A program made the translations under genes and the position numbers. The notes under the pieces are model-generated. The model saw only the letters and a list, made by a program, of their open reading frames with translations. It had not been told where the DNA came from and did not search any database. A stretch of DNA of 64,000 nucleotides from Hwangdonia lutea (GTDB taxonomy: Bacteria > Bacteroidota > Bacteroidia > Flavobacteriales > Flavobacteriaceae), in contig NZ_CP136521.1 in the NCBI RefSeq assembly GCF_032814565.1, positions 310,001-374,000 of the forward strand. Reading direction: 5' to 3'. Shown here piece after piece: positions 743 to 19,374 of this stretch (positions are counted from its first letter, which is position 1; every line of letters begins with the position of its first letter).

Positions 743-865
743 AAGTTGTAAAATTATTCAAAGTTAAAGCTTTTATTCATAATCGTGTAACAAAACAAGT
801 TAAGCATCGTCATACTTAAATAACTAACCGTGTTGAAATTTATTCAGCATAAAAACCAAGCATAT

Positions 866-1762: not shown

Positions 1763-1793
1763 AACCCATCCTAACCAAAAACACACGAACTAT

Positions 1794-2646: not shown

Positions 2647-5355
2647 ATGAAAAAAATTGCCATATTCTTAATAAGCTGTTTAATCGGTTTAAACGGTTTT
2701 GCCCAAAGTGAAGCTGCCAATTGGTATTTTGGCTTTGGCGGTGGCATAAAATTCAACCAAATTAATAATACGGTTACCTCGGTAAGCGACGGACAATTGT
2801 TTACAAACGAAGGTTGCGCATCCATTTCGGACAGTTCTGGAAATTTATTGTTTTATACAGATGGCACCCGAGTTTGGAATAAAAACCATGCCACCATGTC
2901 AAACGGTTTGGGGTTGTATGGCGACTCGTCCAGCACACAATCTGCCATAATTGTACCCAAACCAGACGATGAGAATATTTACTACATTTTCACGGTTGAT
3001 AATGGTCTAGACGGAAACGATTACGGTTTAAACTATTCTGAAGTTAACATGACTTTAGATGGTGGCTTAGGTGCAGTTACCTCAAAAAACACAAATTTAC
3101 TTCAGCGTTGTTCTGAAAAAATTACAGCCGTTTTAAAAGATTGTATTACCAAGTCCATTTGGGTACTTACCCTAGCATCAGAAAATGGCGATGCCGATAT
3201 TTTCAACACTTATCACGCTTTCGAAGTCAATAATTTTGGCGTTAACACAACATCGGTTAAGTCAACATTTAATCTTATGGTTTCAGATGCGCGAGGCTAT
3301 TTAAAGCTATCGCCCGATGGCGAAAAAGTGGCATGTGCCAATGTTAGAGATGGTCTGTATTTATATGATTTTGATGCCGCCACAGGTGTTGTAAGTAATC
3401 AGTTGCAACTTAATTTACCATCTGTTAATTATGCGAGTTATGGTGTAGAGTTTTCACCAAACAGTCAATTGCTTTATGTGCATTCGTATAACAATTTTTT
3501 CGATTTTGAAACGCCTGCCAATAATAATATCCCATCAAATCATACATCATCGCTACTCCAATACAATCTTTTAGCATCAAATATTTCTTCATCTTCATTT
3601 GTTATCGATGATCGAGAATTATATAGAGGTGGTTTACAGCTTGGACCAAACGGTAAAATTTACAGAGCATTAAGCGCCACTTATAATGATGGCTTACCCT
3701 ATCTCGGTGTCATCAATAACCCCAACGGCATTGGGTTTAATGCAAACTATAGCCACAACGCCATTAGTGTTTCACCAAATAATTCGTCACAAGGATTACC
3801 TCCTTTTATAGCTTCTTTTTTTAACGAAAAAATAGACATTATTAAAAACGGTGAAAACTCTACAAATCTGTCGCTTTGCGTCAATGATACATACACTTTA
3901 GCGGCCGACCAAATAACGGGTGCCACCTATAGTTGGACACGTGATGGAAATCCTTTAGCTGAAAGTGATTATGATTTATTAGTTACTCAAAACGGGCATT
4001 ACGAAGTTTATATCGACCCTAATAACGGTGATTGCGCTATTGAGGGTGAAGCCTTTGTGATTTTTAATCCAAACCCCGAAGCCTACAACCACACCCTGTT
4101 GCAGTGCGATGAAGATGGTACGGCCGATGGACGCACGCAGTTCAACCTCAACCAAGCCAACGCTGTTTTAACCAATAACGTCGCGGGCCTTTCAACCAGG
4201 TTCTATACCGATGCGGCCAGAACCAACGAGGTTAACAGCAATGCCTTTACCAACACAGCCAATCCGCAAACCATTTACGTAAACGTCGTTAACGATGCCA
4301 CGGGGTGCTTTTCGGCATCGGAACTGACCCTGAACGTGAGCGTCACCGATTCCGGAGACACCCAACTTATTGCCTGCGATAACGACGGTATCGAGGATGG
4401 GTTTTTCAACTTTAATTTAAGCGATGCCGATAGTGCCATTGTAAGCGGGCTTCCAACCGGTTTAACCATTGCCTACTACGAAACTTACGATGATGCCTTA
4501 CTTGAAACAAATAATTTGGGAACCACGTTTACAAACACAAATCCGTACACCCAAACTATTTACGCACGGGTTGAAAATGCCAACAACTGCTACGGCATCA
4601 GCGAAGTGGCCTTGACCGTAAACGAATTGCCAAATATTGAAACCGAGGCTCTGGCATATTACTGCCTTAACTTTTTTCCTGACACCATCACCTTGGATGC
4701 CGCCGTTATAAACGATGCGCCTTCAAACTATAGCTACAGTTGGTCTACCGGTGAAAGCAGCTATCAAATCGACGTAAACCAAGCGGGCACTTACAACGTT
4801 ACCGTTACCAATGCCAATGGCTGCACCAAACAACGCACCATTACCGTAGAACCTTCAAACATTGCCACCTTTGAGAACATTGAAGTGGTCGATGCCACCC
4901 AAAACAACAGCATTACCGTTTTGGTTTCCGGCGAAGGCGTTTATGAGTACCGCTTGCTGGACCAGAACAATGTGGTTTACGCACCCTATCAGGAAAGCAA
5001 TGTGTTCGAAAACGTTTCCCCGGGCATTTACACCCTTAGCGTTCGCGACATAAAAAACAACTGTGGTACCGTACAAGAGCTGGTTTCTGTTATTGGGTTC
5101 CCTAAATTTTTCACGCCCAATAACGATGGCGATAACGATACCTGGCAGGTCCAAGGGATTTCGGGCATGTTCCAGCCCAATACCAACATCCTTATTTTTA
5201 ACAGGTTTGGAAAACTAATAAAACAGCTGAACCCGTTGGGCGAAGGTTGGGACGGACGCTTTAATGGCCAAAAACTGCCTGCGGACGATTATTGGTTTGC
5301 GGTGACCCTGCAAGATGGAAGGGTATTAAAGAATCACTTTACTTTAAAACACTAA
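2647..5355 (+). CDS. Secreted T9SS type B sorting-domain protein, propeller N-terminus
   Basis: A 902-residue surface or secreted protein. Residues 1-20 form a signal peptide ending GFAQ. Residues about 25-400 contain GNLLFYTDGTRVWN and STQSAIIVPKP, typical of the beta-propeller-like N-terminal region of many Bacteroidota T9SS proteins. Two Cys-Asp repeats begin near residues 485 and 575. An Ig-like block with SYSWSTGESSYQID follows near 690, and the type B sorting domain (FPKFFTPNNDGDNDTW to the C-terminus) covers about the last 85 residues. T9SS would export it and anchor or release it at the outer membrane. The 3' 1285 bp are nearly identical to the next gene. Its biological role (adhesin, gliding or matrix protein) is not determinable here. 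Confidence 0.9.
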   Translation: MKKIAIFLISCLIGLNGFAQSEAANWYFGFGGGIKFNQINNTVTSVSDGQLFTNEGCASISDSSGNLLFYTDGTRVWNKNHATMSNGLGLYGDSSSTQSAIIVPKPDDENIYYIFTVDNGLDGNDYGLNYSEVNMTLDGGLGAVTSKNTNLLQRCSEKITAVLKDCITKSIWVLTLASENGDADIFNTYHAFEVNNFGVNTTSVKSTFNLMVSDARGYLKLSPDGEKVACANVRDGLYLYDFDAATGVVSNQLQLNLPSVNYASYGVEFSPNSQLLYVHSYNNFFDFETPANNNIPSNHTSSLLQYNLLASNISSSSFVIDDRELYRGGLQLGPNGKIYRALSATYNDGLPYLGVINNPNGIGFNANYSHNAISVSPNNSSQGLPPFIASFFNEKIDIIKNGENSTNLSLCVNDTYTLAADQITGATYSWTRDGNPLAESDYDLLVTQNGHYEVYIDPNNGDCAIEGEAFVIFNPNPEAYNHTLLQCDEDGTADGRTQFNLNQANAVLTNNVAGLSTRFYTDAARTNEVNSNAFTNTANPQTIYVNVVNDATGCFSASELTLNVSVTDSGDTQLIACDNDGIEDGFFNFNLSDADSAIVSGLPTGLTIAYYETYDDALLETNNLGTTFTNTNPYTQTIYARVENANNCYGISEVALTVNELPNIETEALAYYCLNFFPDTITLDAAVINDAPSNYSYSWSTGESSYQIDVNQAGTYNVTVTNANGCTKQRTITVEPSNIATFENIEVVDATQNNSITVLVSGEGVYEYRLLDQNNVVYAPYQESNVFENVSPGIYTLSVRDIKNNCGTVQELVSVIGFPKFFTPNNDGDNDTWQVQGISGMFQPNTNILIFNRFGKLIKQLNPLGEGWDGRFNGQKLPADDYWFAVTLQDGRVLKNHFTLKH
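4071..5355 (+). repeat. Copy 1 of a 1285 bp duplicated T9SS 3' cassette
   Basis: The segment matches 6523-7807 at a constant offset of 2452 bp with no indel. The encoded 428 residues differ at about 18 positions (around 96% identity). It covers two Cys-Asp repeats, the Ig-like block and the sorting domain. By hand count, bases 4081-4140 have 36 of 60 G+C and 5221-5280 have 32 of 60, against 18 of 60 at 3481-3540, so the cassette differs in composition from the 5' part of its own gene. The left boundary is sharp at the codons for NPEAYN. Confidence 0.95.
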
Positions 5356-5359
5356 TCAT

Positions 5360-7807
5360 TTGAAATTAGCCCCAAAATTATTCATCTTTTTCATTTTTCT
5401 AGCGCATAATAATATAGCATTTGGGCAACAGCCAACGGATTGTATTGATGCCGTTATTGCTTGCGGAAACTCAAATATCAACCTTAATGTTAGTGGCGTT
5501 GGCACACAAGAATTAAGCGGTTCTAACACCTGTTCCAGTCAAGAAAACAACAGTGTTTGGTTAAAAGTTACTTTAGTAACAAGCGGCACTTTAGGCTTCA
5601 CATTAACTCCTAACAGCACCGCAATAACCGAAGATTATGATTTTTTTGTATTTGGGCCAAATGCAACTTGTGGTAATATTGGGCAAGCCATTCGGTGCTC
5701 GACAACCAACCCTTCAGCTGCCAATCAAGGTAACAATTTAACCGGTATGAATAGCACATCAACTGATACTGCAGAAGGCCCTGGTGCTAATGGCGACAGC
5801 TTTGTAAAATGGTTGGATGTGCTAGCTGGAGAAACTTATTTTATTGTAATCGATAGACCCATCGGCAACAGCCCTTTTAGTTTACAGTGGACGGGAACGG
5901 CACAGTTTTCCGACCCGCCTTCAGATCAGTCTAAAACAAGTGGTACCCCTTTAAATTTAGAAAGTTGCGATGTCGTGGCGCCATTTGATGATGGGTTTAC
6001 AACATTCAACTTAACCGACAATACTAGTTTAATAACAGGAACACAAAGCGACATTACCATTACGTTTCACGAAAACATAAGTGATGCTAATATTGGGATT
6101 AATGAATTAAGTAGCCCGTACACCAACATTAACAATCCGCAAACCATTCATGCCAGAATCACCAACAACACGACAGGATGTTTTGAATTGACGAGCTTTC
6201 AATTAGATGTAAATTTAGGTCCAAACTATGCACCGCCAGCGGATTACGAACTTTGTGATGATGCCATGGACGGAAACAACACCAATGGTCGCGTAAATTT
6301 TGATTTATCTTCCAGAAATTCTGAAATATTAAATGGTCAAAATCCAGCAGATTTTAATATTACCTATCATACGTCACAGTTTGATGCCGAAAATCGGGCA
6401 AATCCTTTGTCGAATCCCTACTACAATGCAACACAATTTAACGAACAGGTTTTTGTGAGAATTGAGGATGCGCTAAATACAGACTGTAAAAGTGTAACGC
6501 CTTTAAATTTAGTGGTGTATTTAAACCCCGAAGCCTACAACCACACCCTGTTGCAGTGCGATGAAGATGGTACGGCCGATGGACGCACGCTGTTCAACCT
6601 CAACCAAGCCAACGCTATTTTAACCAATAACGTCGCGGGCCTTTCAACCAGGTTCTATACCGATGCGGCCAGAACCAACGAGGTTAACGGCAATGCATTT
6701 ACCAACACAGCCAATCCGCAAACCATTTACGTAAGCGTTGTTAACGATGCCACGGGCTGCTTTTCGCCATCGGAACTGACCCTGAACGTGAGCGTCACCG
6801 ATTCCGGCGATACCCAACTTATTGCCTGCGATGACGACGGTACCGAAGACGGGTTTTTCAACTTTAATCTAAGCGATGCCGATAATGCCATTGTAAGCGG
6901 GCTTCCAACCGGTTTAACCATTGCCTACTACGAAACTTACAATGATGCCTTACTCGAAACAAATAATTTGGGAACCACGTTTACAAACACAAATCCGTAC
7001 ACCCAAACTATTTATGCACGGGTTGAAAATGCCAACAACTGCTACGGCATCAGCGAAGTGGCCCTGACCGTAAACGAATTACCAAATATTGAAACCGAAG
7101 CTATGGCTTATTACTGCCTTAACTTTTTTCCGGACACCATCACCTTGGATGCCGCCGTTATAAACGATGCGCCTTCAAACTATAGCTACAGTTGGTCTAC
7201 CGGTGAAAGCAGCTATCAAATCGACGTAAACCAAGCGGGCACTTACAACGTTACCGTTTCCAATGCCAATGGCTGCACCAAACAACGCACCATTACCGTA
7301 GAGCCTTCAAACATTGCCACCTTTGAGAACATTGAAGTGGTCGATGCCACCCAAAACAACAGCATTAGCGTTTTGGTTTCCGGCGAAGGGGTTTACGAGT
7401 ACCGCTTGCTGGACCAGAACAATGTGGTTTACGCACCCTATCAGGAAAGCAACCTGTTCGAAAACGTTTCCCCGGGCATTTACACCCTTAGCGTTCGCGA
7501 CATAAAAAACAACTGTGGTACCGTACAAAACGTGGTTTCGGTTATTGGGTTCCCCAAATTTTTCACGCCCAATAACGATGGCGATAACGATACCTGGCAG
7601 GTCCAAGGGATTTCGGGCATGTTCCAGCCCAATACCAACATCCTTATTTTCAATAGGTTTGGAAAACTAATAAAACAGCTGAACCCGTTGGGCGAAGGTT
7701 GGGACGGACGCTTTAATGGCCAAAAACTGCCCGCAGACGATTATTGGTTTGCGGTGACCCTGCAAGATGGGAGAATTTTTAAAAATCATTTTACACTAAA
7801 ATATTAA
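5360..7807 (+). CDS. Secreted T9SS type B sorting-domain protein, PPC-like N-terminus
   Basis: An 815-residue T9SS cargo paralogue of the preceding gene, starting with TTG only 4 bp after its stop and so probably translated from the same mRNA. The signal peptide ends near NNIAFGQ. Residues about 25-185 form a pre-peptidase C-terminal (PPC)-like module, with WLKVTLVTSGTLGF and DYDFFVFGP. Four Cys-Asp repeats begin near residues 201, 297, 398 and 489. The Ig-like block and type B sorting domain follow. The C-terminal 428 residues are nearly identical to the upstream gene, while the N-terminal half is unrelated. This suggests domain shuffling or gene conversion between cargo genes. No catalytic domain is visible, so an adhesive or structural role is the most cautious inference. 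Confidence 0.88.
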   Translation: MKLAPKLFIFFIFLAHNNIAFGQQPTDCIDAVIACGNSNINLNVSGVGTQELSGSNTCSSQENNSVWLKVTLVTSGTLGFTLTPNSTAITEDYDFFVFGPNATCGNIGQAIRCSTTNPSAANQGNNLTGMNSTSTDTAEGPGANGDSFVKWLDVLAGETYFIVIDRPIGNSPFSLQWTGTAQFSDPPSDQSKTSGTPLNLESCDVVAPFDDGFTTFNLTDNTSLITGTQSDITITFHENISDANIGINELSSPYTNINNPQTIHARITNNTTGCFELTSFQLDVNLGPNYAPPADYELCDDAMDGNNTNGRVNFDLSSRNSEILNGQNPADFNITYHTSQFDAENRANPLSNPYYNATQFNEQVFVRIEDALNTDCKSVTPLNLVVYLNPEAYNHTLLQCDEDGTADGRTLFNLNQANAILTNNVAGLSTRFYTDAARTNEVNGNAFTNTANPQTIYVSVVNDATGCFSPSELTLNVSVTDSGDTQLIACDDDGTEDGFFNFNLSDADNAIVSGLPTGLTIAYYETYNDALLETNNLGTTFTNTNPYTQTIYARVENANNCYGISEVALTVNELPNIETEAMAYYCLNFFPDTITLDAAVINDAPSNYSYSWSTGESSYQIDVNQAGTYNVTVSNANGCTKQRTITVEPSNIATFENIEVVDATQNNSISVLVSGEGVYEYRLLDQNNVVYAPYQESNLFENVSPGIYTLSVRDIKNNCGTVQNVVSVIGFPKFFTPNNDGDNDTWQVQGISGMFQPNTNILIFNRFGKLIKQLNPLGEGWDGRFNGQKLPADDYWFAVTLQDGRIFKNHFTLKY
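6523..7807 (+). repeat. Copy 2 of the 1285 bp duplicated T9SS 3' cassette
   Basis: Direct repeat of 4071-5355 in the same orientation, starting at the codons for NPEAYN and ending at the stop codon. Similarity stops abruptly on the left, where the two genes encode unrelated sequence. Only scattered substitutions separate the copies, most of them conservative or synonymous, which points to a recent duplication or continuing gene conversion. Confidence 0.95.
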
Positions 7808-7945
7808 TATTGCTATCATGAAAACCAATTAAAATCGTATTTTATCGGTTATATTTTGCGCTTCATCTGAAAAAAGTCTATTTTTCATAATAAATTCAAT
7901 TTATGCATTAATTGAGTTTTCCAAATAAAAAAGAAACCTACTGCT

Positions 7946-10900
7946 ATGAAATTTGTTAACTGCTTATTAGGACTGCTTTTACTTGGGAGTAGTTATGCGT
8001 TTTCGCAACAGATTTCAGTCGATGATTCCGTTGGTTTGCAACAACTTATAGAAGACAATTTAGTACAGAATAGCTGTGTTGAAATTACCAATATTACCTC
8101 GTTTGTAAACGGAAGTTCCAGTGGTTTTTCAAGTTATGCTCAATTTGACCGGGCAGGTTCCAACTTCCCTTTTCAAAACGGTATAATGCTTACTACTGGG
8201 AATGCGACCTCTGGCGGAAATAATGTGACCACCCCAACACTTAGCGAAGGCTCAACGGTTTGGGGAACTGACCCGGATTTAGAAGCTGCTTTGGGTATTT
8301 CCAATACTCTGAATGCCACTTCCATCGAGTTTGATATTGTATCTATATCAAGTCAACTTCAGTTTAATTATTTATTGGCTTCCGAAGAATATTTCGGCAT
8401 TAATCCTTGCCAGCTTTCCGATGGTTTTGCGTTTTTAATTAAAGAAACCGGTAGCCCACTACCCTATCAAAATATCGCCTTAGTTCCTGGTACTTCAACA
8501 CCGGTTAACACCAATACCATACATGATGAGATTTTTGGTGTTTGTCCAGCTCAAAATGACCAGTATTTTGATGGATACAACGTTGGTGACACCAATTACA
8601 ACGGTAGAACAACGGTTTTAACAGCTCAAACAACCATAACGCCTTACGTTCAATATCATATCAAATTGGTGATAGCCGATCAAACCGATATTGAATATGA
8701 CTCGGCAGTTTTTATTGAAGGTAATAGTTTTAAAATTTTAGATTTGGGCGAAGATGTTTCCACATGCGCGCCTTCGGTAACCTTGGATGCCGATATAGAC
8801 AATCCACTCGCAACTTATGCTTGGTTTTTGGATAACGCACCCTTGGCAACCACGCTCCCAACAATAAGCGCCACTCAAGATGGTACGTATAGGGTTGAAG
8901 TAACTGTAGATTTAAATGGTACTGCTTGTGTTGAAACCGACGAAATCGTAGTCGTTTTAAATACCGAAGAGCCCATAAACCCAATAACAGACTATGTTTT
9001 ATGTGATGACATTAGTGGTGATGAAACTGAGGTGTTTGACCTTAGCTCTAAAAATGCCGAAGTAATCAACAATATTCCTTTTACAAATTATGACTTCTCC
9101 TATCATTTATCCGATGCCGATGCTAGAAACAATGTAAATCCTGTTTCGGGTAATTTTTCAAATACCATAAACCCGCAAACCATTTATGTTCGAATCCAAG
9201 ATAATGATACAGGCTGCTATGGGTTTACTACATTTAATTTAATAGTAAATCCAGTACCAACCATAACCGATCCAACAGATTTAGAGGTATGCGATAGCGA
9301 CACCCAACCTGATGGATACACCGTTATAGATTTAACTCAAAAAGACGACGAAATAACAGGTGGACAAAGCAGTTTACTAGTAAGTTATCATTACACTAGT
9401 GCCGATGCAGACAGTGGGGCAAACCCAATCCCTATACCATATGTTAACACAAACACACCAACTGAAGTGGTTTACATAAGGGTAATTGATACGCAAACGG
9501 GTTGTGTAAACTCTTCATCATCTTTAACCATTAATATTACAACAAGTCCAATTGTAAATAGGGATACTCAGTATTTAGATGCCTGTGATATGGATCATGA
9601 CGGTAGCGCCGAATTCGATTTAACCCAAGTAATTAACGATGTTTTAATGGGCTTAACCGGAGTAACCTTTACGTTCCATGAAACCTTGCCCGATGCTCAA
9701 TCGGGAGATAATCCAATTGCAAACGAAACCAATTATCAATATCAAAATGCTTTATTAGAACCCGGAAACGCCACGCTTTACATAAGAATTGTAGACGATA
9801 ATACGGGTTGTGCATCCATAGTGCCACTTGAAGTCCACACCAATTTACTACTAACAGGCACAGATACGGGCGATTTTGCCTTATGTGATAACAACGATGA
9901 TGCTACCGATACTCTAGCGTTTGATTTAACTACCGTTGCTCTATATATTGCTGATGAATTGCCTAACATTTTCGTTACATTTTATGAAACTGAAACAGAT
10001 CGGGATTCCGGTACAAACCCACTAGATGATAGCATACTTTATCCTGCTACCAGCCCTACAACATTATATATTAAAATAGATGATACCGCTAGTGGTTGTT
10101 CAGATTTCTCAGAAATCACATTATTGGTAAACCCTGTGATATTGTTCAATCCTGCTAACCCTTTACCATACTGCGATACCGACGATGACGGTATTGTAAG
10201 TATCGATTTGGCTTCGTTAGACGATACCGTAACTGGCGGAAACACAGATTTTGAAGTACGATACTATCCCTCTAGTACCGATGCCGAGAACAATTCCAAT
10301 CAATTACCTCCTTTCTACACCAACACAGGTCCTATTGAAACCATTTACGCACGCATTGAAAATATAGATACGGGCTGTAGCACCATCAACCCATTTGATA
10401 TTGAAATTTATGTGGCACCAGCGGCGACATCGCCAAGTCCAGAAGTGATTTGCGACAATGATAGCAACCCTGAAGATGGATTTTCAATCATCAATCTTGA
10501 TGATGCTATTTCTGAAGTTGTAGCAAACCCAACAGGACTTAACATCGGTTTTTTCAACTCCTTTGATGATGCCGATAACAATGTAAACCCAATTACAAAC
10601 ACGTCCAATTATAACGCCAACACGCAAATCGTGTACATTCGGGTTGGAAATAACGATAGCCTAGGGTGTTATAATATTGTGGAATATGAAATTACCGTAA
10701 ACACCACACCTATAATTCCGGACATAACCCCGTTTCAAATATGTAAAGACGATGGCACTTTTACAGCAGATTTTTTATTAGTTGATAAAGATGCCGAAAT
10801 ATTAAACGGTCAAACCGGAAAAGAAGTCTTTTATTTTGAAGATGCAGCGTTTACATTGCCTATAGACAAAAATACAGCTTACCAAAATACAAGCCCATCG

Positions 10901-12832
10901 CAAACCATATTTATTCGTGTTGAGAATATTACCGATGCGAATTGCGCTGCGACCTCATCGTTTACAATACAAGTATCGTCCGACCCTATTTACAATACGT
11001 TTAGCCCGTATTTGATTTGTGACGATATTACTAACGACCAGCAACACGAATTCGATTTATCTGAAAAAGTAACCGAAATATCCCAAGGTTCGCCAGATAT
11101 TCTTAATGTTTCATTTCATTTAAACCGACAAGATGCCGAGGATAATTTAAACCCGCAACCGTTACAATATACTAACGTTTCAAATCCACAGTCGCTTTAT
11201 GTTCGAATAGAAAATAGCAACTCGTTTTGTTTTGTTGTTGAAGAATTGGGAATAAACATCATTGCATCGCCAGATTTAACAGAGGCTACGCCTTTTGAAA
11301 ATTGCGACACCGATTACGATGGCTTTGTAAGCTTTAATTTGGAAGATGCCGATTTTCAAATTAATGACAGATTGCAAAACAATCTCATCACCAATTACTT
11401 TGAAAACTTTTTAGATATTAATCAAAATGACGGTTTAGATAACAGCAACGAAATTACAGATCCCACCAATTATATTTCGGATACCAAAACAGTTTATATA
11501 AAAGTTGCTAATACCTTAACGGGCTGTTTTAGTGTTATTCCGTTGGATTTGGTAGTCGTTTCACCACCGCCAACAAATAACATTGGCACCATCGAAATTT
11601 GTGATAACGATACCCAGACATTTGATTTAACTACGGTAGATGCCCAAATTGTGAATGACCCAAGTGCTGTAAATATTACGTACCATGACAACCAAAACGA
11701 TGCTGATAACGACCAAAACCCTATTGGAACCACATTCAACTATACCGCGAGTAGTCATATTATTTATGTAAGAGTCAACGATCCGTTGGTTAATTGTCCA
11801 ATAACAGTATCTTTTAACTTACAAATAAATGCAAACCCCATTGCCAATACATCTCCAGATTTAGTAGCATGTGATGATGATTTTGATGGCTTTTTCGAAT
11901 TTGATTTAACGGCAAGCGCCAGTGCAGTAATTGGTTCGCAAAATACTTCAACACATTCGGTAACCTATTATAGCGATGCAACAAATGCCGAAGCTGCTAC
12001 AAACCCTCTGCCAAATTTACATTCTGCTTTTGATGGTGAAATTATTTTTGCACGCATTCAAAATGATAATACAGGATGTTTTGCCGTATCGCAATTTGCC
12101 ACTCGTATAAACCCTTTGCCGGTAATTCCAATAGACGACTTTGTACCCCTTTGTATTAACGATTTACCTTTGATTATTAGCGCAGATACCGGTAACCCAA
12201 ACGACACTTATTTATGGTCTACTGGCGAAACAGCAACCGAAATACTTTTAAATGATACCACAGATATTGGCGATTATTGGGTAACCGTTACAAGGCCCTA
12301 TGTTATAGGTTCAGACTGCTCGTATACCAAAAACTTTACGGTTATTGAATCTGAAGATGCAACCATCAATTTCACCACAAAAGTTGATTTTGCAGACCCC
12401 AACAGCATTACCGTTGATGTTAGCGGTATTGGCGAATATGTATTTATTTTAGATGACGGCGAACCACAAACATCAAACGTTTTTGAAAATGTAACTTTTG
12501 GTTTGCACGTAGTAACCATACGCGATTTAAATGGCTGTAAAGATGTAACCACCGAGGTTGTGGTCATTGATATCCCAAAATTTGTTACGCCAAATAACGA
12601 TGGTACTTTCGATACCTGGCATATTGTTGGCGTGCAGGAAATCCCAGGAACCGTAGTTTACATTTATAACCGACACGGTAAATTATTAAAAACACTTCCA
12701 CATACTTCTGTTGGTTGGGATGGTACTTTTAACGGACAGAACATGCCATCAGATGATTATTGGTTTGTGGCAAAAGTGATTCAAAATGGTGAAGCCTTCG
12801 ATATTCGGGGTCATTTTGCTTTAAAGCGTTAA
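7946..12832 (+). CDS. Giant secreted T9SS type B protein, choice-of-anchor L plus 11 repeats
   Basis: A 1628-residue secreted protein. The signal peptide ends at YAFSQQ (about residue 21). Residues about 35-235 match the choice-of-anchor L domain, with NGIMLTTGNATSGGNN and the acidic Ser motif LLASEEYFGINPCQLSDGFA. An Ig-like segment follows, then eleven repeats of about 85-95 residues from about 345 to 1392. Each starts with a Cys-Asp acidic motif (such as VICDNDSNPEDG, PYCDTDDDG, ACDDDFDG) and ends with a motif like TIYVRVxNxxTGC. An Ig-like block with YLWSTGETATEI precedes the type B sorting domain (IPKFVTPNNDGTFDTW). It is separated from the previous gene by 138 bp and may have its own promoter. 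It is probably an extended surface fibre or adhesin; no enzyme domain is seen. Confidence 0.9.
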   Translation: MKFVNCLLGLLLLGSSYAFSQQISVDDSVGLQQLIEDNLVQNSCVEITNITSFVNGSSSGFSSYAQFDRAGSNFPFQNGIMLTTGNATSGGNNVTTPTLSEGSTVWGTDPDLEAALGISNTLNATSIEFDIVSISSQLQFNYLLASEEYFGINPCQLSDGFAFLIKETGSPLPYQNIALVPGTSTPVNTNTIHDEIFGVCPAQNDQYFDGYNVGDTNYNGRTTVLTAQTTITPYVQYHIKLVIADQTDIEYDSAVFIEGNSFKILDLGEDVSTCAPSVTLDADIDNPLATYAWFLDNAPLATTLPTISATQDGTYRVEVTVDLNGTACVETDEIVVVLNTEEPINPITDYVLCDDISGDETEVFDLSSKNAEVINNIPFTNYDFSYHLSDADARNNVNPVSGNFSNTINPQTIYVRIQDNDTGCYGFTTFNLIVNPVPTITDPTDLEVCDSDTQPDGYTVIDLTQKDDEITGGQSSLLVSYHYTSADADSGANPIPIPYVNTNTPTEVVYIRVIDTQTGCVNSSSSLTINITTSPIVNRDTQYLDACDMDHDGSAEFDLTQVINDVLMGLTGVTFTFHETLPDAQSGDNPIANETNYQYQNALLEPGNATLYIRIVDDNTGCASIVPLEVHTNLLLTGTDTGDFALCDNNDDATDTLAFDLTTVALYIADELPNIFVTFYETETDRDSGTNPLDDSILYPATSPTTLYIKIDDTASGCSDFSEITLLVNPVILFNPANPLPYCDTDDDGIVSIDLASLDDTVTGGNTDFEVRYYPSSTDAENNSNQLPPFYTNTGPIETIYARIENIDTGCSTINPFDIEIYVAPAATSPSPEVICDNDSNPEDGFSIINLDDAISEVVANPTGLNIGFFNSFDDADNNVNPITNTSNYNANTQIVYIRVGNNDSLGCYNIVEYEITVNTTPIIPDITPFQICKDDGTFTADFLLVDKDAEILNGQTGKEVFYFEDAAFTLPIDKNTAYQNTSPSQTIFIRVENITDANCAATSSFTIQVSSDPIYNTFSPYLICDDITNDQQHEFDLSEKVTEISQGSPDILNVSFHLNRQDAEDNLNPQPLQYTNVSNPQSLYVRIENSNSFCFVVEELGINIIASPDLTEATPFENCDTDYDGFVSFNLEDADFQINDRLQNNLITNYFENFLDINQNDGLDNSNEITDPTNYISDTKTVYIKVANTLTGCFSVIPLDLVVVSPPPTNNIGTIEICDNDTQTFDLTTVDAQIVNDPSAVNITYHDNQNDADNDQNPIGTTFNYTASSHIIYVRVNDPLVNCPITVSFNLQINANPIANTSPDLVACDDDFDGFFEFDLTASASAVIGSQNTSTHSVTYYSDATNAEAATNPLPNLHSAFDGEIIFARIQNDNTGCFAVSQFATRINPLPVIPIDDFVPLCINDLPLIISADTGNPNDTYLWSTGETATEILLNDTTDIGDYWVTVTRPYVIGSDCSYTKNFTVIESEDATINFTTKVDFADPNSITVDVSGIGEYVFILDDGEPQTSNVFENVTFGLHVVTIRDLNGCKDVTTEVVVIDIPKFVTPNNDGTFDTWHIVGVQEIPGTVVYIYNRHGKLLKTLPHTSVGWDGTFNGQNMPSDDYWFVAKVIQNGEAFDIRGHFALKR

Positions 12833-12866
12833 CAGTCTCTAATAAGTTAAGTTTGCAACTCATTAT

Positions 12867-13514
12867 TTATTCTGCTTCTTCTAATTGTTTATGAGAACCG
12901 TCGCAATTTGGCTTTCGTTTTGATAGTCCGCAAACACAATCGTTCAAACCATATCCATCCATAATTCGTTGGGTGTTCTTTTCAATTCGCAATATTTTAG
13001 TTTTTGATTGTTTTGGTTTGTTAAAATATAAGAGATAACCTATTTGTCTGCCTTCGGTGAGGCTTTTAAATGCTTTTTCAAATTTAGGGTTTTCTGTAAA
13101 TTTTTGTTCCAGCTCCTTTGGCATTTCAAAATCGGAAGTCTTTTTCTTTTTAACTTTCAATCCCAATTTTTCTATCGCTATGGCTTCCTCAATGTACTGC
13201 TTTATAATTAGTTTCTGTTCTGTAATTTCTGGCGTATCTGTAAATCGGATTTGTCGTGCAGATTGTGTATTTTCAGCTTGTTGAATTAAAATGTTTTCAG
13301 AGTCTTTCAATAAAACACCTTTATGAAACAGAATGGCGCAATAATCTTTGAATTCATGGATTAGAACAATGTTTTTTCCATTGCTTGTATAACAAGGATG
13401 CATCCATTTAAAATCTTCTTTTAGTCCGCAATCCAAAATAATCTCGCGAAGTTTCGTCAATTCGTCCTGCCATTTTTTAAGGCCGTTCAAATATTCATTT
13501 ACTTCTTGGTTCAT
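12867..13514 (-). CDS. DUF1801/YdeI family protein with C-terminal CDGSH iron-sulfur motif
   Basis: A 215-residue cytoplasmic protein. Residues about 1-110 form a DUF1801 fold (WQDELTKLREIILDCGLKE, FKWMHPCYTSNGKNIVLI). Residues 115-185 form the YdeI/OmpD-associated helical part (PKELEQKFTENPKFEKAFKS and a basic segment). The C-terminus contains CVCGLSKRKPNCDGSH, which fits the CDGSH pattern C-x-C-x2-S-x3-P-x-C-D-G-S-H exactly, so it can be expected to bind one [2Fe-2S] cluster. The paralogue at 29808-30401 ends without the motif. It lies in the minus orientation between T9SS cargo genes. The physiological role is unknown; a redox or stress link is inference from the cluster motif. Confidence 0.85.
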   Translation of the reverse strand: MNQEVNEYLNGLKKWQDELTKLREIILDCGLKEDFKWMHPCYTSNGKNIVLIHEFKDYCAILFHKGVLLKDSENILIQQAENTQSARQIRFTDTPEITEQKLIIKQYIEEAIAIEKLGLKVKKKKTSDFEMPKELEQKFTENPKFEKAFKSLTEGRQIGYLLYFNKPKQSKTKILRIEKNTQRIMDGYGLNDCVCGLSKRKPNCDGSHKQLEEAE

Positions 13515-13773
13515 ATTTTTAAGACAGCTTTTATCAAATGTTGCACAACCTTAAATATACCAAATAAAACTAAAAATCGCCGATAATAAATTAAAATCGT
13601 AAAATCGGCCATTTTCAAAGTTCATTTCAATATTATACTTAGACAAATACTACTCACTTCATCTTAAATAATTAAACCTTTAACTTTTTTATAAGTTCAA
13701 CTTAATTAAATGCTATATTTTAGTTGCTTCCTTAATATATGAGCAAATATATTTGATAGCCATGATTTTTTAT

Positions 13774-16700
13774 ATGAAGAAATTAAAAACTCGATTATAT
13801 ATTATTACAACATGTGCATCCGCATTATTTACCTTTTTTAGCAATTCTATTCATGCCCAAACAAACTGTACGTTTGGCGTCGCTGTTTTTAAAGAAGATT
13901 TTGGTTCGGGTACAGCAAGACTTGGCCCTTCTTTAAATCAAGACCCCAATAATGTGCATCCAAACTTTAGGCCTGCCGATTTGTACACTTACGTAGGAAC
14001 TGGAAGTGTAGGTCAAGATCAATATGGCATAATGAAAACCCCTAAAGATGCCGCTCCAAATGGTGCGGATTGGAACGATGATTTTCCAGACCATACCGGC
14101 AACCCCAATGGCTATTTATACTATTGTGATGCCAAAGAAGATTTGAATGTGTTTTATGCACAAAAAATTGATGGTTTGTGCGATGATATACAATACGAAC
14201 TTTCTGCTTGGTTTGCAAAAACAAATGCCCCCGATTACTTTATAGACCCCAATATTAAGTTAATAATTGGGTACACCGATATTAACGACCAGAATATTGG
14301 CAGCATTGTTGAAGCAGACACCGGCCCCATTGAAGGTGTGGGAACGAACAGGTGGCATCGCAGAAGTCTTGTTTTTTCCGTTCCAACGGGAACCGAAAAC
14401 ATCTACTTTATGTTAAAAAATAATGTGGCTGGCTTAGCCGGAAACGATTTAGCAATTGATGATATTCAAATTAGACCATGCGGACCGGTAATTGATAGCA
14501 TCGATCAATTAACAAGCGATCCTTCCTTCAATAATTCTTTTTGTATTACAGACACATCTAATAATACCATTAGTTTATCGGCCAACGTACCTAACAGTTT
14601 TGCCATGCAATGGCAGGAATCTACAACTCCAGGTGTTTGGGTGGATATTCCGAATGAAACATCTAGCGTTTTAAACCATACCATACCCGCCAACTCAAAC
14701 GCAACGCATTTAATAAGGCTTAAATTTGCCCACACTTTAGCCAATTTACTTAATTCTAAATGTCATTTTTTATCAGAGGTTTTAACTTATAATAAAACCT
14801 ATGCGAACCAAGCTTCTCATATGCAATTGTGTGATGACACCGGCGATGGCAAATCGCTATTCGATTTATCATCACAAAACAATTTTATAAACGCTGGTGG
14901 CGGTGTAACGATTACCTATCATAGTTCTCAAAATGATGCGGACACGGGAAACTCCCCATTACCAAACATGTATGATAGCGGAAATGCAACCATTTATGCG
15001 CGGGTAGAAAACAACACCCAATTATTGGGCAATATTTGTTATACCACCACAAGCTTTAATTTAGAAGTTTATTCCACGGTAATTAACACACCCATAAGTG
15101 CTCTGAGCAGCTGCGACAACACCTCCGTTGGTGCCGATACCGACGGCTACAATGTATTCGATTTAACCCTAAAAGAAACAGAACTTTTAAACGGCCAATC
15201 CTCATCAGATTTCACAATTACTTATTTTATTGATGCGGCTTATACCACTCAAATTACAACGCCCAATGCTTTTGTGAATACTACCGCTAGCGGACAAACC
15301 ATATATGTAAGAATCACGAATAACTTAAACCCCATCTGTTACACAGAGACCTCTTTTAACATTGAAGTGCTCTCATTACCTGATGCAAATTACCCAAACA
15401 CCTATAGTCAATGCGATGATGCCTCAAACGACGGACAAGCATTTTTTAACCTAACCCTCAATCATATTAAAGAAGAAATAAACCCTAACTATTTAAGTGA
15501 AGGGCTCATGTTTAGCTATTATGAAAACAAAAACCAAGCAGATAGTGCAACGAGTCCCATCGTAAATCCTACTACTTATCAAAACAGTATTGGTTTTGCC
15601 CCAGAAACCGTGTGGGTTAGAGTCGAAAACCCTAATGGCTGTTTTAGGGTTGTTCCGCTAACATTAGAGGTAAACCCATCAAGCGCAGCGTTAAACCAAT
15701 ATAACCCTCCGCCATTTTCCCTTTGTGACAATGGACCAAATAATAGAGATGGTTTTTCTACTTTTGATTTAACAGGACTAAAGAACCATATTTCAAACAC
15801 TATTTTCTCAACATTTAATGTTACTGTTCATTTTTATGAAAGTCAATTGGATGCTGAATTAGAAACAAATGAATTAACAAATATTGCCAATTACCAAAAC
15901 ACAATCGCTAACAGCTCGCAAAGCCTTTGGGTGCGTGTAAAAAGTGATTTAGGCAATAATTGTTTAGGTTTAAAAGAATTTGCTAACATACTAAACGTTG
16001 AAGCTTTACCCACGGCAAACCCGGTAACCATAAACAGACAATGCGATTTTGATACAACCGATACGGTGGTAAACTACCCGTTTGACACCTCACAAATTGA
16101 AACCGATTTACTAAATGGGCAATCGTCTACAAACGTAACGGTTACCTATTTTGATGAAAATAACGCACCATTACCCAGCCCTTTACCAAATCCATTTTTA
16201 ACAGAAAGTCAAACCATTACTGCGCGGGTAACCAATAATGCAACTTCAGCCCCAAATGGCCCGTGTTATGATGAAACAACGATTGAATTTATTGTAGATG
16301 AACAGCCTATAGCAAACCCCGTTTTCATTCCAGCAGTTTGCGACGGCGATGATGGGTTTGATGACGCTGATGGTTTACACCATTTCGATACCTCAACCAT
16401 TCAAAACAACATTTTAGGTATGCAAACGGGCATGGACGTTTACTATTCTTATTTAGATGAATTTGGGAGTCAAATTACCAATAGTCCGTCGCTACCAAAT
16501 CCATTTGTTTCGGGAACGCAAACCATTACGGTTGATGTTATAAACCCCACAAACCCTACCTGTACAGCATCTACAAATATAGATTTTATAGTAAATCCTT
16601 TACCCGATTTTTCTATTGAAACACCTCAAATTGTTTGTTCTTCCGACCCAACTTTTACAATTATTTTAGATCCTTTGGAAGACAACCCTTCAGAGAATTT

Positions 16701-17343
16701 TGTTTATGAATGGGTTTATGAAGATGGAACAACACTATCCAACAACCCTACATTAACAGTTTCAACCCCCGGAACTTATTCTGTTACACTCACAAAAACT
16801 GATGGTACCGGATGCTCAAGAACACGTGATGTTTTTGTAAATGCTTCCGAACTTGCCACCATCACTTTAAATGATGTTGTTATTGTTGATATTTCAGATA
16901 ACAATTCAATCACTATAAATGAAACCAATCTCGGACTTGGAGATTACGAATACGCTTTGGATGAAGAGTTTTCATTTTATCAAGATGAACCATTTTTCGA
17001 CAACATAAAGGCAGGATTTCACACCGTTTATGTGCGCGATAAAAAAGGTTGCGGTACAAGTTCAATTGATGTTTCTGTGATTGGTTACCCCAAATATTTC
17101 ACGCCAAATGGCGACGGTGTAAATGATTATTGGCAAATTTTAGGAGTAAATAATCAGTTTCAGCCCAATAGCACCATCCAGATTTTTGATCGTTACGGAA
17201 AATTAATAAAACAAATTCAAAGCGCATCTGCTGGATGGAATGGCACATTCAACGGCGAGTTATTAAATACAGATGATTATTGGTTTAAGGTTTATCTTGA
17301 AGATGGCCGGCAATTTATGGGGCATTTCACTTTAAAACGCTAA
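13774..17343 (+). CDS. Secreted T9SS type B sorting-domain protein with six repeats
   Basis: About 1189 residues from the ATG at 13774, which opens directly on a signal peptide ending in SNSIHAQ. The frame is open to a TTG at 13753 and an ATG at 13762, but these would add unneeded residues. Residues about 25-240 form a jelly-roll-like module (GTNRWHRRSLVFSVPTG, IDDIQIRPC), like carbohydrate-binding or laminin-G-like domains, then an Ig-like segment. Six Cys-Asp repeats begin near residues 352, 446, 546, 650, 756 and 855. An Ig-like block and the sorting domain (YPKYFTPNGDGVNDYW) end the protein. It is the fourth cargo gene of the cluster; the domain arrangement supports cell-surface display. 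A glycan-binding role is possible but unproven. Confidence 0.88.
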   Translation: MKKLKTRLYIITTCASALFTFFSNSIHAQTNCTFGVAVFKEDFGSGTARLGPSLNQDPNNVHPNFRPADLYTYVGTGSVGQDQYGIMKTPKDAAPNGADWNDDFPDHTGNPNGYLYYCDAKEDLNVFYAQKIDGLCDDIQYELSAWFAKTNAPDYFIDPNIKLIIGYTDINDQNIGSIVEADTGPIEGVGTNRWHRRSLVFSVPTGTENIYFMLKNNVAGLAGNDLAIDDIQIRPCGPVIDSIDQLTSDPSFNNSFCITDTSNNTISLSANVPNSFAMQWQESTTPGVWVDIPNETSSVLNHTIPANSNATHLIRLKFAHTLANLLNSKCHFLSEVLTYNKTYANQASHMQLCDDTGDGKSLFDLSSQNNFINAGGGVTITYHSSQNDADTGNSPLPNMYDSGNATIYARVENNTQLLGNICYTTTSFNLEVYSTVINTPISALSSCDNTSVGADTDGYNVFDLTLKETELLNGQSSSDFTITYFIDAAYTTQITTPNAFVNTTASGQTIYVRITNNLNPICYTETSFNIEVLSLPDANYPNTYSQCDDASNDGQAFFNLTLNHIKEEINPNYLSEGLMFSYYENKNQADSATSPIVNPTTYQNSIGFAPETVWVRVENPNGCFRVVPLTLEVNPSSAALNQYNPPPFSLCDNGPNNRDGFSTFDLTGLKNHISNTIFSTFNVTVHFYESQLDAELETNELTNIANYQNTIANSSQSLWVRVKSDLGNNCLGLKEFANILNVEALPTANPVTINRQCDFDTTDTVVNYPFDTSQIETDLLNGQSSTNVTVTYFDENNAPLPSPLPNPFLTESQTITARVTNNATSAPNGPCYDETTIEFIVDEQPIANPVFIPAVCDGDDGFDDADGLHHFDTSTIQNNILGMQTGMDVYYSYLDEFGSQITNSPSLPNPFVSGTQTITVDVINPTNPTCTASTNIDFIVNPLPDFSIETPQIVCSSDPTFTIILDPLEDNPSENFVYEWVYEDGTTLSNNPTLTVSTPGTYSVTLTKTDGTGCSRTRDVFVNASELATITLNDVVIVDISDNNSITINETNLGLGDYEYALDEEFSFYQDEPFFDNIKAGFHTVYVRDKKGCGTSSIDVSVIGYPKYFTPNGDGVNDYWQILGVNNQFQPNSTIQIFDRYGKLIKQIQSASAGWNGTFNGELLNTDDYWFKVYLEDGRQFMGHFTLKR

Positions 17344-17370: not shown

Positions 17371-19374
17371 ATGAAATTCAAAATAGATTCAGAATTTAAA
17401 CCAACTGGCGATCAACCACAAGCTATAAAGCAACTTGTTAATGGCATTAATACGGATGAAAAGTACCAAACTTTACTCGGTGTAACCGGTTCGGGAAAAA
17501 CCTTCACGGTTGCCAATGTGATTGAAGATGTGCAGCGCCCTACTTTGGTTTTAGCGCATAACAAAACACTCGCAGCGCAACTATATTCTGAGTTTAAACA
17601 GTTTTTCCCAGAAAATGCCGTTGAGTATTTTGTATCGTATTACGATTATTATCAACCCGAAGCTTACATTCCCGTTTCGGGCGTTTACATAGAAAAAGAT
17701 TTATCCATCAACGAGGAAATCGAGAAGATGCGTTTAAGCACAACATCCTCATTGCTTTCGGGCAGACGCGATGTAATTGTAGTCGCATCCGTATCCTGTT
17801 TATATGGTATTGGTAATCCGGTGGAGTTTCAAAAAAACGTCATCACCCTCACAAGAGACCAAGTTATTTCGCGCACCAAACTACTGCATCAATTGGTGCA
17901 AAGTTTATACTCGCGTACCGAGGGCGAATTTAATCATGGGAATTTTAGGATTAAAGGCGATACTGTAGATATTTTCCCGAGTTATGCCGATGATGCTTTC
18001 AGGATTCATTTTTTTGGCGATGAAATTGAAGATATTGAATCCTTTAATATTCAAACCAACGAAGTCATTGAAAAATATGACATTCTAACCATTTACCCAG
18101 CAAACATGTTTGTGACCTCGCCAGAGGTTTTACAAGGTGCTATTAAAAACATTCAGGATGATTTGGTAAAACAATACGATTATTTTAAGGAAATCGGAAA
18201 ACATTTAGAAGCAAAACGTTTGAAAGAGCGTACCGAATTCGATTTGGAAATGATACGCGAATTGGGCTATTGTTCGGGAATTGAAAACTATTCGCGGTAT
18301 TTGGATGGCAGACAACCGGGAAGCAGACCATTCTGTCTATTGGATTATTTTCCAGAGGATTACTTAATGGTTGTCGATGAAAGCCACGTTACCATTTCGC
18401 AAGTGCACGCTATGTATGGTGGCGATAGAAGCCGAAAGGAAAACTTAGTGGAATACGGTTTTAGGTTACCCGCCGCTATGGATAATCGGCCATTAAAATT
18501 TGAGGAATTTGAAGCCTTGCAAAACCAGGTTATTTACGTAAGTGCAACGCCTGCAGATTACGAACTTCAAAAATCCGATGGTATTTATGTGGAACAGGTG
18601 ATTCGCCCCACAGGGTTATTGGATCCCGAAATTGAAGTTAGACCAAGCTTAAACCAGATTGACGATTTAATTGAAGAAATACAGCAACGTGTTGAAAAAG
18701 ACGAACGCACTTTGGTAACCACGTTAACAAAACGTATGGCTGAGGAATTGACCAAATATTTGGATCGCATTCAAATACGCTGTCGTTATATTCACAGTGA
18801 TGTCGATACTTTAGAGCGCGTTGAAATTATGCAAGATTTACGTAAAGGCTTGTTTGATGTTTTAGTTGGTGTTAACCTTCTTCGTGAAGGGTTGGACTTA
18901 CCCGAAGTATCACTTGTTGCTATTTTAGATGCCGATAAAGAAGGCTTTTTACGTTCGGCCCGTTCACTTACCCAAACCGTTGGAAGAGCCGCGCGACACT
19001 TAAACGGAAAGGCCATTATGTATGCTGATAAAATTACCAAAAGCATGCAAAAAACCATTGACGAAACAGAATACAGGCGCGAAAAACAAATTGCTTATAA
19101 CACCGAAAACAACATCACACCAAAAGCCTTAAATAAAAGCTTGGACAATGCCTTATCAAAAAACTCGGTGAGCACGTATAGTTACGAATTGGAAGCTGCA
19201 AAAGCCGCCGAACCAGAAAGTGCCTATTTAAGTAAACAAGAACTGGAAAAGAAAATTCGCGAAAAGCGAAAATCCATGGAAGAAGCCGCCAAGGCTCTAG
19301 ATTTTATTGTGGCGGCCAAATTACGAGACGAAATTAAAAGCTACCAAAATAAACTAGAAAAGCTAAAGGTGTAA
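17371..19374 (+). CDS. uvrB: UvrABC nucleotide excision repair helicase subunit UvrB
   Basis: Full-length UvrB (667 aa). It loads with UvrA at DNA lesions, verifies damage and recruits UvrC for incision. Visible features are the N-terminal FKPTGDQPQAIKQL, Walker A in GVTGSGKTFTVANV, the beta-hairpin region with YYDYYQPEAYIP, DEAD-like VVDESHVTI, the helicase motif VGVNLLREGLDLPEV with QTVGRAARH, and a C-terminal UVR domain (residues about 625-665, KRKSMEEAAKALDFIVAAKL) that contacts UvrC. The start follows a -7-like element by only 4 nt. A hairpin overlapping the stop codon acts as terminator. It is probably monocistronic. Confidence 0.98.
   Translation: MKFKIDSEFKPTGDQPQAIKQLVNGINTDEKYQTLLGVTGSGKTFTVANVIEDVQRPTLVLAHNKTLAAQLYSEFKQFFPENAVEYFVSYYDYYQPEAYIPVSGVYIEKDLSINEEIEKMRLSTTSSLLSGRRDVIVVASVSCLYGIGNPVEFQKNVITLTRDQVISRTKLLHQLVQSLYSRTEGEFNHGNFRIKGDTVDIFPSYADDAFRIHFFGDEIEDIESFNIQTNEVIEKYDILTIYPANMFVTSPEVLQGAIKNIQDDLVKQYDYFKEIGKHLEAKRLKERTEFDLEMIRELGYCSGIENYSRYLDGRQPGSRPFCLLDYFPEDYLMVVDESHVTISQVHAMYGGDRSRKENLVEYGFRLPAAMDNRPLKFEEFEALQNQVIYVSATPADYELQKSDGIYVEQVIRPTGLLDPEIEVRPSLNQIDDLIEEIQQRVEKDERTLVTTLTKRMAEELTKYLDRIQIRCRYIHSDVDTLERVEIMQDLRKGLFDVLVGVNLLREGLDLPEVSLVAILDADKEGFLRSARSLTQTVGRAARHLNGKAIMYADKITKSMQKTIDETEYRREKQIAYNTENNITPKALNKSLDNALSKNSVSTYSYELEAAKAAEPESAYLSKQELEKKIREKRKSMEEAAKALDFIVAAKLRDEIKSYQNKLEKLKV

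What the first reader, a model, noticed from the sequence alone, without database searches (positions are those of the whole stretch)
2647..17343. Family of about 90-residue Cys-Asp repeats in variable copy number (2, 4, 11, 6) across four T9SS proteins
Each unit starts with C-D-x-D-x-D/N-G-like acidic sequence (for example CDTDDDG, CDDDFDG, CDNDSNPEDG) and ends with an IYVRVxNxxTGC-like motif, so each has a conserved Cys near both ends. The acidic loop resembles calcium-binding DxDxDG loops, and the Cys pair could form a disulfide. I infer stacked, Ca-stabilised Ig-like modules forming extended fibres whose length varies by copy number. I do not know a name for this repeat.
Basis: partly seen in the sequence, partly recalled or inferred. 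Interest (0 to 1): 0.6.

Follow-up and report, generated by a model that had tools for sequence, protein, structure and literature searches.

The report
Fixed-length Ig-like stalks on gliding bacteria
Four neighbouring genes encode predicted cell-surface proteins with stalks of 2, 4, 11 and 6 copies of an uncatalogued Ig-like module with a conserved cysteine pair and an acidic loop, and the 11-copy stalk has kept nearly the same length across many genera of related bacteria, as if its reach matters.

Summary
Twenty-three 90-104-residue units (2, 4, 11, 6) lie in four type IX secretion (T9SS) type-B proteins; both Cys are invariant, the acidic loop is common. No Pfam or NCBIfam model covers the unit above cut-off. 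AlphaFold2 gives a confident Ig-like sandwich (pLDDT 92; four-unit tandem 94, pTM 0.73). Profile comparison makes it a distant relative of Pfam Ig_7 with the same Cys pair. Ig_7 domains build the T9SS-secreted grappling hook GhpA, the best match for the tandem. Calcium and the disulfide itself were not tested.

Unit number is mostly fixed within each protein type. The 11-unit protein has exactly 11 in 80 of 80 named orthologues (47-85% identity; the most similar of 390), and 872 of 880 units match the same-numbered window unit. D-type proteins and extra copies vary; a few exceptions exist.

No PorP/SprF shuttle gene lies beside these genes. The genome's one unattached shuttle carries the Cys-x-Cys tail that in SprF joins adhesins to gliding tracks. 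Best reading: orphan type-B surface proteins, probably adhesins, on set-length stiff stalks, possibly carried by the gliding machinery.

The parts
2647..5355 (+). Protein A (902 aa): head, 2 units, PKD/Ig-like domains, type-B CTD
4084..4641 (+). 2-unit array of A
5092..5349 (+). T9SS type-B sorting domain of A (TIGR04131, 117.6 bits)
5360..7807 (+). Protein B (815 aa): different head, 4 units; its last ~420 residues are 96% identical to A's
5945..7093 (+). 4-unit array of B
7544..7801 (+). T9SS type-B sorting domain of B (115.4 bits)
7946..12832 (+). Protein C (1628 aa): choice-of-anchor L head, 11 units, type-B CTD
8048..8731 (+). Choice-of-anchor L domain (NF038133, 147.4 bits, cut-off 27)
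8981..12130 (+). 11-unit array of C, same number and order in the named orthologues
12566..12829 (+). T9SS type-B sorting domain of C (104.7 bits)
13753..17343 (+). Protein D (1196 aa): different head, 6 units, PKD domain, type-B CTD
14809..16614 (+). 6-unit array of D
16612..16830 (+). PKD domain after the array of D (PKD_4, 32.3 bits, cut-off 27)
17080..17340 (+). T9SS type-B sorting domain of D (118 bits)
830..2618 (+). ABC transporter ATPase and permease: upstream border of the cassette in 67 of 80 named loci; link to function unknown
17371..19374 (+). uvrB: downstream border of the cassette in 68 of 80 named loci

Best explanation
These are four T9SS type-B surface proteins, each built as head + stalk + anchor. 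The stalk is a stiff run of Ig-like modules of an uncatalogued family, a distant relative of Ig_7, the domain that recurs in the GhpA grappling hook. Each module very probably has one internal disulfide between its first strand and the start of its last strand; an acidic loop after the first Cys may bind Ca2+. The stalk holds a head at a set distance from the outer membrane, and its unit number is mostly a fixed property of the protein type (usually 2, 4 or 11) rather than a drifting number. Inferred further step: since no PorP/SprF shuttle gene lies beside them, they are exported and anchored by the genome's single unattached shuttle, whose Cys-x-Cys tail would let them be coupled to GldK and carried on the gliding tracks. 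Shown: units, CTDs, fold model, Cys conservation, nearly fixed number and order, absence of an adjacent shuttle, Cys-x-Cys tail. Inferred: disulfide pairing, calcium, stiffness in solution, shuttle pairing, gliding-track coupling, adhesion.
For: Type-B CTD in 4 of 4. Unit model pLDDT 92.4; four-unit tandem pLDDT 94.0, blocks across the linkers mostly 90 or more (one block 79), pTM 0.73. Tandem against PDB: six GhpA entries rank first, E 1.6e-14 to 1.5e-11; GhpA fills the first six ranks by Z, 8.4-7.6. Units versus Ig_7 profile: E 4.2e-5 with both Cys aligned; control CTD profile E 0.67. The Ig_7 profile hits GhpA at E 1.8e-105; by eye, in 8 of 8 GhpA entries the stretch aligned to our unit is one of the stronger Ig_7 stretches. 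80 of 80 named orthologues with 11 units and 872 of 880 units in register. Own genome: 12 CHU_C-type CTDs, 5 PorP/SprF genes of which 4 lie beside other type-B genes and one is alone; the lone one has a Cys-x-Cys tail, kept in 24 of the 29 best-matching relatives read. F. johnsoniae precedent: three orphan type-B CTDs share one orphan shuttle, and the fusion with one of these CTDs moved on the helical track in 3% of cells (PMC12618676, abstract and passages); the SprF Cys-x-Cys tail bonds to GldK (PMC12635249, passages).
Against: The single-unit structural match is modest (best Foldseek E 7.5e-3 is Izumo1, GhpA second at 1.1e-2; best Z 6.2), a level the tool says can be a common arrangement. 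Superposition of the tandem on GhpA has rmsd 18-21 A, and two further GhpA entries (Z 6.6, 6.4) rank among ordinary Ig proteins: domains correspond, inter-domain angles do not. The unit profile finds no GhpA or other credible PDB sequence. No coordinates, hence no measured Cys-Cys distance or Ca geometry. 247 of 1514 units keep fewer than two of the three Asp. The orphan CTDs are only slightly closer to each other (35-59%) than to the SprB-like one (36-48%). Shuttle pairing is by elimination; 5 of 23 genomes outside the family have units without that shuttle orthologue, 1 family genome likewise, and 2 family genomes have the shuttle without units. In the precedent most foci of the orphan-CTD fusion were static. 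Adhesion is untested.
Confidence: 0.65

Rival explanations
1. Released or statically anchored structural or carbohydrate-binding proteins (biofilm matrix, polysaccharide capture) whose repeats are ordinary spacers, with no link to the gliding tracks.
For: Another F. johnsoniae type-B CTD (Fjoh_3952) gave only static foci, and most foci of the Fjoh_1123 CTD fusion were static (PMC12618676 passages). Some named loci are Mariniflexile, and one Mariniflexile species is described as non-motile (PMC11278836, abstract start).
Against: The only unattached shuttle has the Cys-x-Cys tail that SprF uses to join GldK.
Confidence: 0.4
2. Ca-dependent rods like the extender domains of RTX adhesins or cadherins: the acidic loop is an essential Ca site that stiffens the stalk, the disulfide being secondary.
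For: CDxDxDG-like loop; 1267 of 1514 units keep at least two of three Asp; cadherins are prominent after GhpA among matches of the tandem. Ca-stiffened Ig-like repeats are known in RTX adhesins (PMC7493085, PMC4083281, abstract starts).
Against: 71 of 1514 units have none of the three Asp, while Cys loss is near zero. The loop lies inside the unit, not in the linker where RTX adhesins hold Ca (highlights of PMC7493085). No ion evidence.
Confidence: 0.35
3. The fixed 11-unit length is only slow evolution or sampling of close orthologues, not selection on reach.
For: The 80 named loci were the 80 most similar of 390 candidates. Among 80 strong head matches (73 genomes) found without regard to repeats, 8 open frames fall outside 1600-1670 aa; 3 of these run off their contig, one of them with at least 15 units, and one complete one has 17 units with no 11-unit-sized frame among the strong matches of its genome. 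One orthologue in the same gene context (L060) has 9 units.
Against: Sequence has diverged to 47% identity while number and order stayed; second copies beside them gain units in blocks of three (14 or 17 units), so unit gain is possible.
Confidence: 0.38

Closest known systems
Pfam PF19081 Ig_7 (Ig-like domain, CHU_C associated)
   Same: Ig-like; N-terminal and late Cys aligned; CHU_C (type-B) context; profile-profile E 4.2e-5
   Different: Below Pfam's gathering score; Ig_7 has an invariant Trp in mid-domain and aligns without the CDxDxDG loop and the helix after it
GhpA grappling-hook protein, Aureispira sp. CCB-QB1
   Same: Best match of the unit by Z and of the tandem by E and Z; hooks formed by a T9SS-secreted protein (PMC11205867 passage)
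   Different: 5898-aa sequence rich in Ig_7-type domains against 815-1628 aa; no sequence match to our units; heptamer and hook not tested here
SprB / SprF gliding adhesin of Flavobacterium johnsoniae
   Same: Type-B CTD, PorP/SprF shuttle class, Cys-x-Cys shuttle tail as in the predicted partner
   Different: SprB has its shuttle gene next door; these four are orphans with another stalk module
Ca-stabilised Ig-like repeats of RTX adhesins (MpAFP, MhLap) and staphylococcal B domains
   Same: Tandem Ig-like extender modules that bind Ca (abstract starts only); acidic loops here are only a resemblance
   Different: Other secretion route (recalled); about 120 copies in MpAFP; here the number is nearly fixed and Cys are conserved

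Membership tests
T9SS type-B substrate (TIGR04131) | C-terminal sorting domain above curated cut-off | tested here: met
   4 of 4 proteins, 104.7-118 bits, cut-off 35
T9SS type-B substrate (TIGR04131) | porP/sprF shuttle gene directly downstream (common, not universal) | tested here: not met
   None of the genome's 5 PF11751 matches lies in the window. They are orphans, a known subclass
T9SS type-B substrate (TIGR04131) | Actual export to the cell surface | not testable with these tools
   Needs cells
Pfam Ig_7 (PF19081) | Score at or above gathering cut-off 27.3 | tested here: not met
   27.2 for A, 18.3 for B, none for C and D at E<=1; 4 of 23 window units match at E<=10, best 9.8e-5; 2 of 110 units at E<=0.1
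Pfam Ig_7 (PF19081) | Two conserved Cys near the start and the end of the domain | tested here: met
   Both invariant in 20 of 20 Ig_7; hhalign aligns both with ours
Pfam Ig_7 (PF19081) | Invariant Trp of the WY motif | tested here: not met
   W invariant in 20 of 20 Ig_7; the aligned unit column is Tyr 62% / Phe 36% in 1514 units
GhpA-like hook filament | Stalk of the same domain family by sequence | tested here: inconclusive
   Fold match but no direct sequence match; linked only through Ig_7
GhpA-like hook filament | Heptameric assembly with hooks | not testable with these tools
   No complex prediction available
SprB-type gliding adhesin | Shuttle with Cys-x-Cys tail joined to GldK | tested here: inconclusive
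   Candidate shuttle has the tail; its pairing with A-D is inferred

The most novel reading that the evidence does not exclude
Protein C is a molecular ruler: an 11-module, disulfide-stapled rod (perhaps 40-50 nm, from a recalled ~4 nm per Ig domain) whose length has been held by selection across much of the family, so that its choice-of-anchor L head sits at a set height beside shorter 2- and 4-module neighbours, all driven along the gliding track by one shared Cys-x-Cys shuttle.
Probability: 0.28. Interest if true: 0.68.

Novelty: new variant of a known kind. Interest (0 to 1): 0.5.

Why it matters
Repeat stalks on bacteria are often taken to change length easily (recalled); a stalk held at 11 modules while its sequence drifts to 47% identity makes 'does the reach of a surface protein matter?' directly testable. 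The work also defines a so far uncatalogued domain family (1580 copies in 80 loci), ties it to Ig_7 and the GhpA hook, and names one candidate shuttle for eight orphan type-B proteins of a genome.

Tried and rejected
Family look-ups of the unit: protein C and a profile of 110 units gave no credible PDB sequence; NCBIfam gave only scattered chance-level hits for 110 units; Pfam gave only weak Ig_7 plus scattered single hits. The viral structure library gave general Ig-like folds, none with E <= 0.001. A single Ig_7 sequence did not find GhpA by phmmer; only the profile did. GldA identity of the upstream ABC ATPase: 171.5 bits against a cut-off of 402.6, not met. Literature: the searches listed no paper that I could recognise as describing this repeat or the ABC-uvrB cassette; only listed titles, abstract starts and passages were seen, subscription journals are not held, and the original GhpA paper was not read (it is cited in PMC11205867). 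Homogenised A and B tails as a general rule: rejected; 95-97% in the window and 90-98% in two close relatives (L087, L134), 65-88% in L089, but 36-63% over the units and middle part in the seven other loci. 'The main 11-unit copy never changes': rejected, see the 9-unit L060 and the 17-unit protein in L258.
Full report
WHAT IS THERE. The window is 310001-374000 of a 3.9-Mb single-contig genome; the named loci with 85% identical C orthologues are Gaetbulibacter, Wocania and Flaviramulus, that is Flavobacteriaceae (family from recall). An HMM trained on any three of the proteins finds every unit of the fourth, far above shuffled controls. The consensus runs CD-x-D-x-DG...F-D/N-L...I...V-x-Y-Y/H...DA...N-P...Y-x-N...QTIYxRVxN...GC...F-x-L-x-V.

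CONSERVATION. In 80 named loci there are 1580 units, 1514 of them scoring at least 40 bits and used for counts. The second Cys is present in 1514 of 1514; the first fails to align in 7, of which by eye four are alignment shifts, one is a truncated contig end and two lack it. The three Asp of the loop are less strict: all three in 668, two in 599, one in 176, none in 71. Proteins of another type with just one unit keep both Cys in 27 of 27, so the pair does not seem to need a neighbouring unit.

FOLD. The single-unit model (110 sequences) has pLDDT 92.4, with strands at 5-9, 17-19, 34-39, 55-57, 62-71, 77-88 and short helices at 20-28 and 42-46. Cys8 lies in the first strand and Cys76 directly before the last; the acidic loop is the turn after the first strand. 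A four-unit tandem of C (81 sequences) has mean pLDDT 94.0 and pTM 0.73, which suggests a rather defined rod. For the tandem the first six PDB matches by E are GhpA fragments (1.6e-14 to 1.5e-11), with cadherins prominent after them. GhpA also fills the first six ranks by Z (8.4 to 7.6), two more GhpA entries come lower (6.6, 6.4), and rmsd is 18-21 A, meaning domain-by-domain correspondence and different bending. For the single unit the matches are modest: Izumo1 is first by E (7.5e-3) and GhpA first by Z (6.2). No coordinates were available.

RELATIONSHIP. Twenty Ig_7 sequences from this genome and relatives were compared as a profile with the units: E 4.2e-5, 70% probability, both Cys aligned; the 23 window units alone gave E 1.1e-5 over the last two thirds; a type-B CTD control gave 0.67. 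The same Ig_7 profile hits GhpA at 1.8e-105, and in 8 of 8 GhpA entries listed the stretch aligned to our unit coincides, by eye, with a strong Ig_7 stretch. So the module is best seen as an uncatalogued relative of Ig_7 in which an acidic loop and a short helix follow the first Cys. It does not pass the Pfam cut-off (27.2 against 27.3 at best), and I do not file it as Ig_7.

COPY NUMBER. Read across genomes the finding changes character. Both the ABC transporter pair and uvrB flank the cassette in 57 of 80 named loci; in 21 only one of the two is on the stretch held, in 2 neither. Grouping 282 complete unit-bearing ORFs of the 80 loci by head: anchor-L heads give 11 units in 83, 14 in 4, 17 in 1, 10 in 1, and a shorter subtype 2 in 32; the B head gives 4 in 25 of 25; the one-unit type 1 in 27 of 27; the A-like group 2 in 44, 4 in 31 and other counts in 5; the large D-like group 2, 4, 6 or 7 (2, 19, 5, 1); the window's own D head 6 in 2 of 2. 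So a head group has one or two preferred numbers, except D. The best C orthologue of each locus has 11 units in 80 of 80, at 47-85% identity, and 872 of 880 units match the window unit of the same number best. These 80 were the most similar of 390 candidates, and some are the same genomes as the G-handle set. So I checked with the head alone in 199 genomes, one per genus, of which 119 had a match. Of the 80 matches above 334 bits (a threshold set after seeing the list; 73 genomes), 72 lie in open frames of 1600-1670 aa, a proxy for 11 units; the other 8 are 504, 1226, 1445, 1783, 1897, 2167, 2181 and 2189. I read four of these: 504, 1226 and 1783 run off their contigs (with 2, 9 and 15 units so far), and 2181 is complete with 17 units. 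The 1445 frame is L060, with 9 units in the ABC-uvrB context; 1897, 2167 and 2189 lie in genomes that also have a 1600-1670 frame. In the named loci the 14- and 17-unit proteins are second copies beside an 11-unit one, extended by repeating a block of units 9-10-11 or, in the 17-unit one, 9-10 and one that matches unit 1 best. So units can be gained, yet the main copy rarely changes.

EXPORT AND ANCHORING. The genome has 12 CHU_C-type CTDs and five PorP/SprF genes. Four of these lie beside other type-B genes; one stands alone at 2056 kb. Eight type-B proteins, among them A-D, have no neighbour shuttle. Their CTDs are 35-59% identical to each other (A-B 95%), 36-48% to the CTD of a >2800-aa protein that I call SprB-like for its size and its shuttle, and 22-40% to the other three. 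In F. johnsoniae three orphan type-B CTDs share one orphan shuttle (PMC12618676, abstract and passages). The lone shuttle here ends in ECRCPAVN, a Cys-x-Cys tail; it is present in 25 of the 30 best-matching loci read, this genome included. Of the other four shuttles only the one beside the SprB-like gene has it. In F. [quoted passage not shown] Among 37 family genomes, units and a shuttle orthologue above 190 bits (threshold set after seeing the list) occur together in 30, units alone in 1, shuttle alone in 2, neither in 4 (Fisher p 0.001, not corrected for kinship); outside the family 5 of 23 have units and none has that orthologue. The pairing is therefore likely but inferred.

DISTRIBUTION. 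Matches occur in 36 of 60 genomes at E <= 1e-4, this one included, and in 41 of 296 genomes sampled across the phylum at E <= 1e-5: 29 of the same family, six of the same order, six of the same class.

VERDICT. A real, widespread, uncatalogued Ig-like stalk module in orphan T9SS type-B proteins; the surprising part is not variable but mostly held length. Calcium binding, the disulfide and gliding-track coupling are testable predictions, not results.

Noticed in passing
window 4071-5352 and 6523-7804: A and B share a ~1.28-kb tail at 96% DNA identity (52 differences in 1282) behind heads only 24% alike: a recent head swap or gene conversion.
   Followed up: partly
L195:6172-7176 (G000:C1:2056171-2057175): The only PorP/SprF gene of the genome not beside a type-B gene; its C-terminal Cys-x-Cys tail is present in 25 of 30 loci read.
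   Followed up: partly
L107, L109, L129, L157, L162: Second C-type copies with 14 or 17 units, made by repeating a three-unit block near the end of the array.
   Followed up: partly
L258:2605-9147 (G145): A complete 17-unit C-type protein directly after the one-unit type, where other genomes have the 11-unit one.
   Followed up: partly
window 5062, 7514, 12536, 17050: Each protein has one Cys without an obvious partner in the domain just before the CTD (A C806, B C719, C C1531, D C1100); C1531 is invariant in 13 orthologues.
   Followed up: no
window 13753-13774: The TTG start of D may be too early; the Met at the eighth codon (13774) would give an ordinary-looking signal peptide.
   Followed up: no
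window 830-2618: An ABC ATPase/permease pair borders the cassette in 67 of 80 named loci and may be linked to it or merely a stable neighbour.
   Followed up: no
L066:3409-18846 (G033): A 5145-aa protein with 34 units after the same ABC pair.
   Followed up: no
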